The notes beneath the pieces were generated by a model that worked only from the letters and a program-made list of their open reading frames with translations, was not told the DNA's origin and searched no databases. From Embleya scabrispora (GTDB lineage Bacteria > Actinomycetota > Actinomycetes > Streptomycetales > Streptomycetaceae): a stretch of 64,000 bases of DNA. Positions 11,683 to 15,073 of the stretch are shown in pieces; within the stretch, counting starts at the first letter, position 1; every line of letters begins with the position of its first letter. The translations under genes and the position numbers were made by a program. The stretch spans positions 2,542,001 through 2,606,000 of the forward strand of contig NZ_MWQN01000001.1 of the NCBI RefSeq assembly GCF_002024165.1, in the 5' to 3' direction.

Positions 11683-12198
11683 ATGACAGGACGCGACGCA
11701 ATTGATGACGTATGGGACCAATGGCACCGTGAACGCCCCGAGATCGACCCCGACCTGCTGGACGTGATGGCCGCAGTCGGCCGCATGAACCGACTGCGCC
11801 GCCACATCGACCAGACGTTGCGGACCTACTTCGCCCGATACGGGCTCGACTTCTCCGAGTTCGACGTGCTGGCCACGCTGCGCCGCTCCGGCGGCGCCGA
11901 GGGGGTCAGCGCGGGCACGCTGCTGCGCTCGGCGATGGTGACGTCGGGCGCGATCACCAACCGGGTGGACAAGCTCACCGCCAAGGGCCTGGTCGAGCGC
12001 TCGGTCTGCGCGGAGGACCGCCGCTCGGTCCGGGTCAAGCTGACCCCGGAGGGCATCCGGCTCGTGGACGACATCCTGCTCGGCCACATCGAGAACGAGG
12101 CACGCTTCCTGGCCGTACTCGACGCAGACGAGCGCGACCTGCTCAACAACTTGCTACGCAAACTGCTGATCGCGCAGGGGGATACGCACTTGGGTTGA
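11683..12198 (+). CDS. MarR-family transcriptional regulator
   Basis: A 171-residue winged-helix regulator. Helices at the N-terminus (residues 1-45) would form the dimer interface. The DNA-binding core includes LDFSEFDVLATLRRSGG, the recognition-helix region VTSGAITNRVDKLTAKGLVER and the wing DRRSVRVKLTPEG, all close to the MarR consensus. The ATG follows TTGGAG at good spacing. It most likely represses itself and the divergent EamA transporter through the palindromes in the shared promoter, and would be released by a small ligand that cannot be predicted. Downstream lies the giant repeat, not another gene. Confidence 0.92.
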   Translation: MTGRDAIDDVWDQWHRERPEIDPDLLDVMAAVGRMNRLRRHIDQTLRTYFARYGLDFSEFDVLATLRRSGGAEGVSAGTLLRSAMVTSGAITNRVDKLTAKGLVERSVCAEDRRSVRVKLTPEGIRLVDDILLGHIENEARFLAVLDADERDLLNNLLRKLLIAQGDTHLG

Positions 12199-12236
12199 TC
12201 GGCGGGAGGGGGCGGGGCGGGGGTGGGAGGGGTGGG

Positions 12237-12536
12237 TGGGTCGGGATCGCGGCGAGGGCGGAGGGGCGGGCCGGGGTCGCGACGGGAGCGGGAGGGTGGG
12301 CGCGGTCGCGACGGGGGCGGGTGGGTGGGCGCGGTCGCGGCGGGGGCGGGTGGGTGGGCGCGGGGGCGGAGGGGCGGGCCGGGGTCGCGGCGAGAGCGGG
12401 TGGGTGGGCGCGGTCGCGGCGAGAGCAGGAGGGTGGGCGCGGTCGCGGCGAGAGCAGGACGGCAGGCACAGTCGCGACGAGAGCGAAAGGGTGGGCGCGG
12501 TCGCGACGGGAGGGCAGGGGTGGGCCGGGGTCGTGG
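12237..12536 (+). repeat. 29-bp degenerate tandem array, about 10 copies
   Basis: G-rich units built around GGTGGGCGCGGTCGCGGCG. The TCGC core recurs at 12247, 12277, 12306, 12335, 12385, 12414, 12443, 12472, 12501 and, as TCGT, 12531: spacing is 29 or 30 bp except for one 50-bp step, where a unit lacks its core. The array has no unique spacers, so it is not CRISPR. Confidence 0.85.
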
Positions 12537-12690
12537 TGGCGGCGGCGGCTTTTTATTGGGCGCTTCGCGCCGGCTCGCGAGGCACCGCTTTTCTGCTCCC
12601 CCGCTTCGCTCCTCCGCAGAAAAGCGGCACCCCGCTCGCGGCTGTGCGCCCCTCCGCTTCGCTCCGGGTCGCCCAGCCTAAAAAAACAAG
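12518..12690 (+). repeat. left arm of 173-bp perfect inverted repeat
   Basis: Read in reverse complement, this stretch is identical to 12950-13122 at every base I compared. Imperfect pairing continues outward to 12500 and inward to about 12761. Within it are smaller palindromes, including a 12-bp stem CCGCTTTTCTGC/GCAGAAAAGCGG at 12585-12596 and 12616-12627. Confidence 0.9.
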
Positions 12691-12701
12691 GCGGCTCCGC
12701 C
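12680..12701 (-). terminator. candidate intrinsic terminator in the left arm (minus strand)
   Basis: On the minus strand, GGCGGAGCCGCC is followed by TTGTTTTTTT. It could stop transcripts leaving glmS after they have copied the right arm. The stem is short (4-5 bp), weaker than its right-arm counterpart. Confidence 0.45.
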
Positions 12702-12934
12702 GCTCTCCGCGCTTCGCGCGTCGATCACCACCTCGGCCCCACTCGTGGGCGCTGACGCGCCGACGGGGTGCACCAACGACTCGGGTCACCGGGCAAGGCC
12801 CACATCGCGGCGGTGGCCAGGCGGGGCGGGACCCGCGTCGTGTCGCGAGCCTGGCCTCCCCGCCCCTCACCCCCGTGGCGCGTCAGCGCCCACGAGAAGG
12901 GCCGCCCACGCGATCGACGCGCGCAGCGCGGAGA

Positions 12935-12960
12935 GCGGCGGAGCCGCCGCTTGTTTTTTT
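12935..12960 (+). terminator. intrinsic terminator in the right arm (plus strand)
   Basis: GCGGCG-GAGC-CGCCGC stem-loop followed by TTGTTTTTTT, a classical rho-independent terminator and unusual in so GC-rich a genome. It would stop marR readthrough after the left arm and loop have been transcribed. Confidence 0.6.
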
Positions 12961-13122
12961 AGGCTGGGCGACCCGGAGCGAAGCGGAGGGGCGCACAGCC
13001 GCGAGCGGGGTGCCGCTTTTCTGCGGAGGAGCGAAGCGGGGGAGCAGAAAAGCGGTGCCTCGCGAGCCGGCGCGAAGCGCCCAATAAAAAGCCGCCGCCG
13101 CCACCACGACCCCGGCCCACCC
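12950..13122 (-). repeat. right arm of 173-bp perfect inverted repeat
   Basis: Exact reverse complement of 12518-12690. Pairing continues imperfectly outward to 13140 and inward to about 12877, where CACGAG-type sequence mirrors CTCGTGGGCGCTGACGCGCC at 12742-12761. Confidence 0.9.
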
Positions 13123-13215
13123 TTTCACTCCCGTCGCGACTCCGGCCCGGAGCCCTACCACCGCCGCGACCCCGGCCCGGAGCCTTAACCGTCACGACTC
13201 CGGCCCGGAGCCCCC
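13105..13215 (-). repeat. inverted 28-30-bp tandem array, about 4 copies
   Basis: Units of the form CGACTCCGGCCCGGAGCC start near 13107, 13137, 13167 and 13195. In reverse complement they resemble the left array (GGGCCGGGGTCGCGGCG), so both arrays appear to belong to one large palindromic structure. The last unit ends just before the glmS stop codon. Confidence 0.75.
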
Positions 13216-13222
13216 GCGCCCC

Positions 13223-15073
13223 CTACTCCACCGTCACCGACTTCGCCAAGTTCCGCGGCTGGTCCACCTCGTGCCCCTTGGCCGTGGCCAGTTCACACGC
13301 GAACACCTGGAGCGGCACCGTGGACACCAGCGGCTGCAGCAGTACCGGCGTGGCCGGGATGCGCACCAGGTGGTCGGCGTACGGCACGACCGCCTCGTCG
13401 CCCTCCTCGGCGATCACGATGGTGCGCGCGCCCCGGGCCCGGATCTCCTGGATGTTGGACACGATCTTGTCGTGCAGCACCGAGCGCCCGCGCGGCGACG
13501 GGACCACCACGACCACCGGCAGGCCCTCCTCGATCAGCGCGATCGGGCCGTGCTTGAGCTCGCCCGCGGCGAAGCCCTCGGCGTGCATGTACGCCAGTTC
13601 CTTGAGCTTCAGCGCGCCTTCGAGGGCCACGGGGTAACCCACGTGCCGGCCCAGGAACAACACCGAGCCCGCGTCCTTGAGCGATCGCGCCAACTCGCGC
13701 ACCGGCTCCATGGTGTCCAGGACCTTGTCCACCATCTCGGGCATCGCCGCGAGCTGCTCGATCACCTCGGTGATCTCGTCGCCCCACTTGGTGCCGCGCA
13801 CCTGGCCCAGGTACAGCGCGACCAGATAGCACGCGACCAGCTGGGTCAGGAACGCCTTCGTCGAGGCCACCGCGACCTCGGGGCCGGCGTGCGTGTACAG
13901 CACGGCGTCCGCCTCGCGCGGCATCGTCGAGCCGTTGGTGTTGCAGATGACCAGTACCTTGGCGCCCTGCTCGCGGGCATGCCGCTGGGCCATCAGGGTG
14001 TCCATCGTCTCGCCGGACTGCGAGATCGTCACCACCAGCGTCTGCCGGTCCAGGATCGGGTCGCGGTAGCGGAACTCGCTGGCCAGCTCGACCTCGCAGG
14101 GCACCCGGGTCCAGTGCTCGATCGCGTACTTGGCGATCAGGCCCGCGTGGAACGAGGTGCCACAGGCGATGATCACCACCTTGTCGATCTCGCGCAGCAC
14201 CTCGTCGGCGATCCGCACCTCGTCGAGCACCAGGCGCCCGTCGGTGCCGATCCGGCCCAGCAGGGTGTCGCCGACCGCCTTGGGCTGCTCGGCGATCTCC
14301 TTGAGCATGAAGTAGTCGTAGCCGTCCTTCTCCGCGGCCGACACATCCCAGTCGACGTGGTACTCGCGAAAGGCCGCCGGCGCGCCGTGGAAGTCGGTCA
14401 CCGTGACGCTGTCCCGGCGCAGCTCCACGACCTGGTCCTGACCCAGCTCGATCGCCTCGCGCGTGTGCTCGATGAACGCGGCCACATCCGACGCCAGGAA
14501 GTTCTCGCCGACGCCGCGACCGACCACCAGCGGGGAGTTGCGGCGCGCGCCGACCACCACGTCGGGGGCGTCGGCATGCGTCGCGACCAGGGTGAACGCG
14601 CCCTCCAGGCGGCGGCAGACCCGGCGCATCGCCTCGGCCAGGTCCTGCCCCGCGCCCGGGAACTCCTCGGCCAGCAGGTGCGCGACGACCTCGGTGTCCG
14701 TCTCGGAGGCCAGCTTGTGCCCGCGCTCGGTCAGCTCGGCCCGCAACGCCGCGAAGTTCTCGATGATCCCGTTGTGCACGACCGCGACCCGGCCCGCGTT
14801 GTCCAGGTGCGGATGCGCGTTCACGTCGTTGGGCGCGCCGTGTGTGGCCCACCGCGTATGACCGATGCCGCACGTCCCCACCGGAAGCGGCGACTGCGTC
14901 AGCGCGTCCACGAGGTTGGCCAGTTTCCCGGCCCGCTTCTCGCTCACCAGCGCCCCGTCCACGAGCACGGCCACCCCGGCCGAGTCGTAGCCGCGGTACT
15001 CCAGCCGCCTGAGCCCGCCGATGACCACATCCAGCGCCGATTGAGCGCCCACATATCCCACAATCCCGCACAT
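13223..15073 (-). CDS. glmS: glutamine-fructose-6-phosphate aminotransferase (isomerizing)
   Basis: A 616-residue GlmS that makes glucosamine-6-phosphate from fructose-6-phosphate and glutamine, the first step to UDP-GlcNAc. The N-terminal glutaminase domain starts MCGIVGYVG, with Cys2 as nucleophile, and includes HTRWATHG. Two SIS domains follow, with [18 protein letters not shown] and [10 protein letters not shown]; the C-terminus KSVTVE is universal. ATG chosen because it exposes Cys2. TAGGCT 7 nt upstream suggests a leaderless transcript; no glmS ribozyme fits in the 93-bp divergent gap to coaA. glmM lies 3 kb away on the same strand, supplying the next step. Confidence 0.98.

What the first reader, a model, noticed from the sequence alone, without database searches (positions are those of the whole stretch)
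12500..13140. Giant inverted repeat with 173-bp perfectly identical arms between convergent marR and glmS
By direct reading, 12518-12690 is the exact reverse complement of 12950-13122, and imperfect pairing extends this to about 12500-12761 and 12877-13140 around a centre near 12820. No gene, transposase or target duplication is present. Perfect arms of this size are expected to be deleted or rearranged quickly, so their identity suggests recent origin or active homogenisation. A transcript crossing the region would fold into a very long double-stranded RNA hairpin. It may be a new type of bacterial repeat element, an overbuilt bidirectional terminator, or an RNase III-dependent RNA source.
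Basis: seen in the sequence. Interest (0 to 1): 0.85.

Follow-up and report, generated by a model that had tools for sequence, protein, structure and literature searches.

The report
Embleya-specific paired structured-RNA repeat element
The giant inverted repeat is two head-to-head copies of a roughly 205-base repeat, seen only in the bacterial genus Embleya among the genomes searched, that is scattered in dozens of copies, keeps a folded shape and can sit where relatives have a plain hairpin at the ends of two genes.

Summary
In detail: 12518-12690 and 12950-13122 are exact reverse complements (173 bp) between convergent marR and glmS. The locus is one inverted pair (doublet) of a ~205-bp unit with 52 full-length and 8 partial matches in this genome. 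The unit's invariant loop is in 4 of 4 Embleya genomes and 0 of 390 other Streptomycetaceae genomes searched. Stems covary while loops stay fixed, and on one strand G.T pairs outnumber A.C mismatches 153:2, so that strand seems to act folded, most simply as RNA. Copies at shared sites resemble copies in their own genome more than their orthologue: concerted evolution. The arms are identical because two similar alleles met; 11 other doublets have 81-89% identical arms. At this site (two relatives) and one other (one relative), genomes lacking the unit carry a plain GC-rich hairpin instead. No IS200-type transposase was found. Best reading: a recombination-homogenised structured-RNA cassette that can take over 3'-end formation. 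Identity is firm; the 3'-end role is inferred and untested; a parasitic mobile element is the main rival.

The parts
12554..12761 (-). left unit (subtype II), full-length structured repeat, read leftwards
   Evidence: covariance model R1, 210.4 bits, E 2e-52 (this very sequence was not in the model's alignment, its partner unit was)
12877..13086 (+). right unit (subtype I), full-length structured repeat, read rightwards
   Evidence: covariance model R1, 210.7 bits, E 2e-52 (this unit, as L068:3878-4087, was part of the model's alignment)
12762..12876 (.). spacer between the two units, conserved among doublets at other loci
   Evidence: alignment of 13 doublets
12518..12690 (+). left exact arm, 173 bp
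12950..13122 (+). right exact arm, reverse complement of the left
12225..12533 (+). outer ~29-bp tandem repeats on the marR side, G-rich on the + strand (C-rich in the outward direction)
   Evidence: Tandem Repeats Finder
13131..13213 (+). outer ~30-bp tandem repeats on the glmS side, C-rich on the + strand
   Evidence: Tandem Repeats Finder
13006..13062 (+). central hairpin H5 of the right unit; invariant loop at 13025-13043
   Evidence: H5 stem covariation; coordinates read
13069..13081 (+). 3'-end hairpin H6 with GAA loop, right unit
   Evidence: covariation of the stem; coordinates read
12933..12952 (+). terminator-like hairpin followed by a T-run, right unit (rightward transcripts)
12691..12703 (-). 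terminator-like hairpin followed by a T-run, left unit (leftward transcripts)
11683..12198 (+). MarR-family regulator gene, convergent partner
   Evidence: matches below the curated cut-offs of the named MarR models
13223..15028 (-). glmS (start as called; the true start may lie upstream)
   Evidence: TIGR01135 / NF001484 above cut-off

Best explanation
The inverted repeat is a doublet of a ~205-bp repeat whose strand running from the spacer outwards folds into several hairpins. SHOWN: a dispersed family, found only in Embleya among the genomes searched, of singles, inverted doublets and one tandem array; covarying stems with fixed loops; strand-specific wobble pairs; concerted evolution; presence/absence differences between species. 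INFERRED: the folded strand is RNA and the units act on transcripts as portable 3'-end modules. A polymerase leaving marR crosses the left unit backwards, then makes the right unit's hairpins, a hairpin + U-run and a C-rich tail; glmS transcripts meet the mirror image. This would stop both convergent transcripts by hairpin/U-run and possibly Rho-dependent termination, or protect their 3' ends, in place of the plain hairpin that relatives have. INFERRED: copies are spread and kept alike mainly by homologous recombination, with some hairpin template switching, while selection keeps the fold and the loop, which a trans-acting factor may read.
For: Copies: 60 matches in own genome, 52 above 200 bits (150 candidates scored); core 36-mer in 55 places, 54 with no mismatch, 1 with one, none with 2-3. 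Distribution: loop motif (exact) in 4 of 4 Embleya (52, 32, 15, 10 copies) and 0 of 390 other family genomes; backwards-pattern control 0. Structure: 97.0% of cells paired versus 41-54% when slid; 17 of 44 pairs with two-sided changes (1/500 shuffles reach it); covariation score 0.260 versus 0.119 shuffled, 0/500. Strand: 153 G.T against 2 A.C cells inside the helices of up to 78 units; 10 pair positions with G.T in two or more units, none with A.C (sign test p 0.002). Replacement: marR-glmS lacks the unit in G002 and G003 and holds an 18-19-bp GC-rich hairpin; the L083 site lacks it in G002 and holds a perfect GC-rich hairpin, while units fill the gap in G000 and G001. Terminator-like matches in the window element: 6 (4 distinct sites) against 0.8 +/- 0.9 in shuffles. 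C>G skew 5' of singles in 36 of 40; 17 G000 singles against 55 control gene ends p 2e-5. Concerted evolution: 10 unit comparisons at 9 shared sites are 76-91% identical, each lower than the best in-genome relative on either side (90-100%); all four combinations of two H4 and two H5 alleles occur in G000.
Against: No expression data. Single-unit folding energy does not tell the strands apart (-115.2 vs -116.9 kcal/mol, z -4.4 vs -4.6). Number of extra pair types is not beyond shuffles (36 vs 33.2, 43/500), and H4 has unpaired positions. Only some alleles (both here included) have a U-run after a hairpin. Of the three plain hairpins at unit-free sites only one, in G003 and on the glmS side, meets the hairpin + U-run scan; G002 marR-glmS does not, and the L083-site hairpin shows no U-run by eye, so calling them terminators is itself inference. 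Doublets are not confined to convergent genes: 2 of 13 convergent, 7 co-directional, 4 divergent by my own gene caller, some neighbours over 1 kb away. Of 19 singles with a called 5' neighbour 13 are sense to it. At lexA-dinG the unit was added beside a hairpin that stayed. C>G skew fails in G003 (2 of 5). Twenty neighbour proteins share no theme. Template switching could make some two-sided changes without selection (one loop-inverted copy).
Confidence: 0.45

Rival explanations
1. A non-autonomous mobile element (REPIN- or MITE-like): the fold and fixed loops are the recognition site of an unknown transposase or recombinase, and the copies do nothing for the host.
For: Dispersed copies, doublets with a shared spacer, sharp inner ends in singles, presence/absence at marR-glmS and lexA-dinG, intergenic location at unrelated genes, doublets at divergent genes too.
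Against: No Y1/IS200-type transposase (PF01797) in 4 Embleya genomes, with 5 of 14 control genomes positive; other transposases were not searched. No simple target duplication seen by eye at the filled/empty comparisons; sequence was replaced or extra DNA came along. 17 of 20 fetched G001 regions have the flanks of a G000 unit locus (16 of 33 G000 loci), so mobility looks low. G.T over A.C bias would need single-strand recognition.
Confidence: 0.32
2. A DNA-level element: cruciform or single-stranded hairpins that bind gyrase, nucleoid proteins or repair enzymes and shape the chromosome; compensatory changes come from replication template switching rather than selection on RNA.
For: A copy with the loop inverted inside an intact stem, as a template switch would give (L151); 29 of the 33 pattern loci on the 7.0-Mb contig C1, p 0.003; long palindromes in doublets.
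Against: A symmetric DNA process predicts equal G.T and A.C; 153 to 2 was seen. Arms of one doublet are less alike than arms of different loci, odd if a perfect cruciform were the working form.
Confidence: 0.13
3. Multi-copy small-RNA genes: each unit is transcribed on its own and the invariant loop titrates or guides a factor.
For: Strand-specific wobble pairs, invariant loops, structure.
Against: Singles have unlike DNA directly upstream; no sigma-70-like promoter was found at the window doublet (other promoter types not covered). No Rfam family matches.
Confidence: 0.06
4. Assembly fold-back or chimera.
For: In 23 of 24 G002 regions fetched a unit or fragment lies within 350 bases of a contig end, so they are hard to assemble; one G001 locus (L128) joins flanks of two G000 sites.
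Against: The two units here differ in subtype and flanks; 12 other doublets lie at other loci; G001 contigs break in the same orthologous gap, one of them at the edge of the element.
Confidence: 0.02

Closest known systems
REP / BIME / REPIN (GTAG-tagged palindromes with RAYT)
   Same: Dispersed intergenic palindromic repeats occurring as singles and inverted pairs with a spacer; often downstream of genes (PMC3116915 passages; PMC3733652 abstract and passages)
   Different: Unit ~205 nt with several hairpins instead of 20-40 bp; no GTAG tag seen in the consensus; no RAYT-type transposase found in the 4 genomes
CGTC-tagged REPs
   Same: Inverted pairs predominate, no dedicated transposase known (PMC3733652, passages)
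   Different: Those have 8-9 bp stems with the CGTC tag outside the pairing; here a CGTC string lies inside the first hairpin and the element is far larger
Inverted DNA uptake sequences serving as terminators in Neisseria/Haemophilus
   Same: A recombination-linked repeat that doubles as a terminator when inverted (recalled; PMC2397512 seen only in a search listing)
   Different: No uptake role suggested here; structure far larger; unrelated genus
Plain GC-rich hairpins of the terminator kind
   Same: Occupy the same convergent gaps in relatives without the unit
   Different: Single hairpins, different in each species, not a repeat family

Membership tests
REP/REPIN mobilised by RAYT | RAYT (Y1_Tnp, PF01797) in the genome | tested here: not met
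   0 of 4 Embleya genomes; 5 of 14 controls positive
REP/REPIN mobilised by RAYT | 20-40 bp palindrome tagged GTAG | tested here: not met
   unit is ~204-210 bp in G000; consensus holds no GTAG
REP/REPIN mobilised by RAYT | two inverted copies plus spacer as a dispersed unit | tested here: met
   13 doublets sharing spacer and arm subtypes
MITE / insertion sequence | target-site duplication and defined terminal inverted repeats | tested here: inconclusive
   unit ends are similar hairpins (GGCGC..GCGCC) in G000 and G001 but not in most G002 copies; no clean duplication seen by eye
MITE / insertion sequence | matching transposase in the genome | not tested
   only PF01797 was searched
Known structured RNA family | match to an Rfam model | tested here: not met
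   window 12000-13400: two matches at E 0.58, far below gathering score; L083, L140, L161: none at E 0.1
Intrinsic terminator | GC hairpin followed by a U-run on the transcript | tested here: met
   for both units in the window; not for all alleles
Intrinsic terminator | causes transcription to stop | not testable with these tools
   no RNA data
Rho-dependent terminator | C-rich, G-poor transcript before the stop point | tested here: inconclusive
   C>G skew 5' of 36 of 40 singles but 2 of 5 in G003; above control in G000; no Rho data
Structured RNA element | compensatory base changes with G-U wobble on one strand | tested here: met

The most novel reading that the evidence does not exclude
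Embleya has evolved a genus-wide structured-RNA 3'-end cassette, about 50 copies in this genome, that replaces plain terminator hairpins at unrelated genes, is spread and homogenised by recombination without a dedicated transposase, and is read by a trans-acting factor through its near-invariant loop GGAGGAGCGAAGCGGGGGA. Hairpin stems drift in a coordinated way; the doublet form gives opposing terminators back to back.
Probability: 0.28. Interest if true: 0.78.

Novelty: new variant of a known kind. Interest (0 to 1): 0.62.

Why it matters
Dispersed palindromic repeats in bacteria are common but the best-known kinds are tiny and tied to RAYT transposases. Here is a large one with strong covariation evidence for a folded single strand, with filled and unit-free sites in sister species, and with clear concerted evolution. 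That makes it a testable case of how a multi-copy RNA element spreads, stays uniform and may take over a host function without an obvious transposase. It may also explain why contigs of draft Embleya assemblies end at these places.

Tried and rejected
Considered and set aside: RAYT/REPIN (no PF01797); known Rfam RNA; a coding gene in the gap; phage origin (no match in the phage collection); plasmid origin (1 record matched, an Embleya 5.7-Mb replicon with one 83.5% copy); a regulon of related genes (20 proteins); arm-to-arm homogenisation inside a locus; hairpin H2 as a local stem (no pairing in the register tested; RNAalifold offers a weak closing helix instead). One hit outside the genus with the covariance model (E 0.006, one of 196 genomes) was taken as chance. 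An integron-attC resemblance of the 3' end was considered from memory and dropped because many copies break it. Seven paper searches found no description of this element: (open-access library only; most subscription papers are missing). The Embleya genome paper PMC13152386 was seen as abstract and passages: 'palindrom' and 'hairpin' occur 0 times in it. PMC12306157 and PMC2267715 were seen as passages only: neither names Streptomyces.

Full report
OBSERVATION. The exact 173-bp arms are real (12518-12690 / 12950-13122). Near-matching extension reaches 12493 and 13147, with an inner 82% pair. The region folds to -685 kcal/mol against -361 for 20 shuffles, and no other exact inverted pair of 22 bp was found in the window. 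The gap lies between a MarR-family gene and glmS; my gene caller put no gene in it.

WHAT IT IS. A 151-bp piece of the arm has 40 near-full-length matches in this genome at 88-100% identity, its own two copies included (40 candidates scored). The repeat resolves into a unit of mostly 204-210 bp, starting GGCGCGTCAGCGCC and ending GGCGC-GAA-GCGCC-CAACA. The core 36-mer occurs 55 times: 54 without a mismatch, 1 with one. A covariance model built from 43 units finds 60 matches in the genome, 52 of them above 200 bits and 8 partial, and two strong ones in the window: 12877-13086 (+) and 12554-12761 (-). The 55 pattern hits lie at 33 loci: 13 hold an inverted doublet (one with a tandem array attached, L078) and 20 hold single or same-strand units. 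The model adds at least one full-length copy outside these 33 loci (C1:3603408). The doublets share a spacer and have one arm each of two subtypes. The window doublet has the most similar arms: 0.948 against 0.805-0.886 in the other 11 compared; the array locus was left out. Arms of one locus average 0.845 and arms across loci 0.869; 97% of permutations were at least as similar as observed. So the perfect arms here are two similar alleles meeting, and the family if anything avoids perfect palindromes.

DISTRIBUTION. The genus is Embleya: contigs of E. hyalina NBRC 13850 and E. scabrispora DSM 41855 hold the pattern, and their lengths match contigs of G001 and G002 (an inference). The loop motif, searched exactly, is present in 4 of 4 Embleya genomes (52, 32, 15 and 10 copies) and in 0 of 390 other family genomes. 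The covariance model agrees (4 of 4; one marginal hit in 196 others; 12 candidates scored per genome), as does the arm by BLAST (4 of 200; 3 candidates scored per genome). Of the 33 loci 29 lie on the 7.0-Mb contig (p 0.003). The 5.7-Mb replicon of Embleya sp. NBC_00888 showed one copy.

STRUCTURE. Across 43 units from four species the hand-drawn structure keeps 97.0% of cells paired, against 41-54% when slid. 17 of 44 pairs show changes on both sides (1/500 shuffles reach it), the covariation score is 0.260 against 0.119 shuffled (0/500), while the number of further pair types is not exceptional (36 vs 33.2, 43/500). Shuffles do not model relatedness, and cells count copies rather than events. 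H4 and H5 carry most of the covariation (8 pairs each), H6 one; H1 and H3 never vary in this alignment and say nothing. H4 has unpaired positions. RNAalifold adds a weak closing helix that would make a multi-arm junction. Over 78 distinct units, of which 74-78 could be read per helix, helices hold 153 G.T and 2 A.C cells on the unit's own strand. Counting positions with two or more units gives 10 to 0 (p 0.002). Register shifts among stems of different length mix some positions. Folding energy of one unit does not separate the strands (-115.2 vs -116.9 kcal/mol). Deamination of a transcribed strand could also make G.T, but the flanks are mostly C-rich, not C-poor, on that strand. One copy (L151) has the loop inverted inside an intact stem, so template switching happens too; a paper on this mechanism was seen only in a search listing (PMC8794818).

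EVOLUTION. Of 20 G001 regions fetched, 17 have the flanks of a G000 unit locus (16 of the 33 G000 loci); some are shared with G002 and G003 too. In some G001 regions only fragments remain, and in L133 the profile found none. At 9 shared sites with full units (10 comparisons) the units are 76-91% identical, while the best relative in the same genome is 90-100% identical; the 100% is a duplicated contig region, L116/L117. The orthologue ranks 2nd to 14th among 14 G001 units. Flanks of these nine sites match at 83.6-97.6%, most stretches above 91%, but these are largely coding, so the paralogue ranking is the better evidence. All four combinations of two H4 and two H5 alleles occur in G000, which suggests recombination between copies. 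At a HelD/HelR-like gene (below curated cut-offs) a unit or unit remnants follow in all four genomes; in G001 they are decayed partial copies.

FILLED AND UNIT-FREE SITES. marR-glmS: in G002 and G003 the gap is ~95-100 bp and folds into one 18-19-bp GC-rich hairpin, different in each species. Only the G003 one meets a hairpin + U-run scan, on the glmS side; G002 does not. In G001 the contigs end in the gap, one of them at the edge of the element. L083 site: in G002 a perfect GC-rich hairpin without a U-run (by eye); in G000 and G001 units fill the gap between the two stop codons. lexA-dinG: unit only in G000, added with extra flanking DNA beside a hairpin that is kept, by eye. So two of three sites compared show replacement of a plain hairpin and one shows addition.

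CONTEXT. By my own codon-model gene caller, doublets lie between convergent (2), co-directional (7) and divergent (4) genes, with some neighbours over 1 kb away. Of 20 single or same-strand loci, 13 are sense to the 5' neighbour, 6 antisense and 1 has no called neighbour. Twenty neighbour proteins scanned share no theme. The sequence 5' of singles is C>G in 36 of 40 rows (16/17, 13/13, 5/5 and, against the trend, 2/5 in G003), and 3' of them in 31 of 40; 3' of doublet units in 24 of 26 in G000 and 0 of 1 in G002; all 9 tandem rows are C>G on both sides. Rows with short or N-holding flanks were dropped, and one pair of G001 rows is a duplicate. Controls after ordinary stop codons average -0.03 (n 55). 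Terminator-like matches in the window element: 6, at 4 distinct places, against 0.8 expected.

MECHANISM. Taken together, the most likely use is at the 3' end of transcripts: opposing structured units with hairpin/U-run and C-rich tails that end or protect both convergent RNAs. This is inference: no expression data were available, not every allele has a U-run, and doublets between divergent genes are unexplained by it. The chief rival is a non-autonomous mobile element whose fold serves its own spread; no RAYT-type transposase was found, but other enzymes were not searched.

KNOWN RELATIVES. It resembles REP/BIME/REPIN repeats in layout (PMC3116915 passages, PMC3733652 abstract and passages) but fails their size, tag and RAYT features, so it is not filed as one. 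No Rfam family matches, and the paper searches made here show no description of it.

Noticed in passing
L078:3589-5992 (G000 C1:4445.1-4447.5 kb): A doublet followed by a tandem array of same-strand units with two alternating variants, period 635 bp for the pair; array repeats are nearly identical, suggesting recent amplification.
   Followed up: partly
L151:2497-2703 (G002): One unit has its central loop inverted within an intact stem, a template-switch signature.
   Followed up: yes
L128 (G001:C58:30600-35800): Flanks of two different G000 unit sites (L083 and L062) are joined at a unit: either a rearrangement between units or a misassembly.
   Followed up: no
G002 regions L135-L154 and L171-L174: In 23 of the 24 G002 regions fetched (all but L148) a unit or unit fragment lies within 350 bases of an end of the region, nearly always a contig end, so the family seems to break draft assemblies; the regions were chosen from unit matches.
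   Followed up: partly
L073:1095-3227 and orthologous regions L132, L140, L161: A HelD/HelR-like gene is followed by a unit or unit remnants in all four genomes; in G002 the unit abuts the stop codon.
   Followed up: partly
window 12225-12533: G-rich ~29-bp minisatellite directly after marR; similar repeats flank many units on their outer side and could form G-quadruplexes or R-loops (a guess).
   Followed up: no
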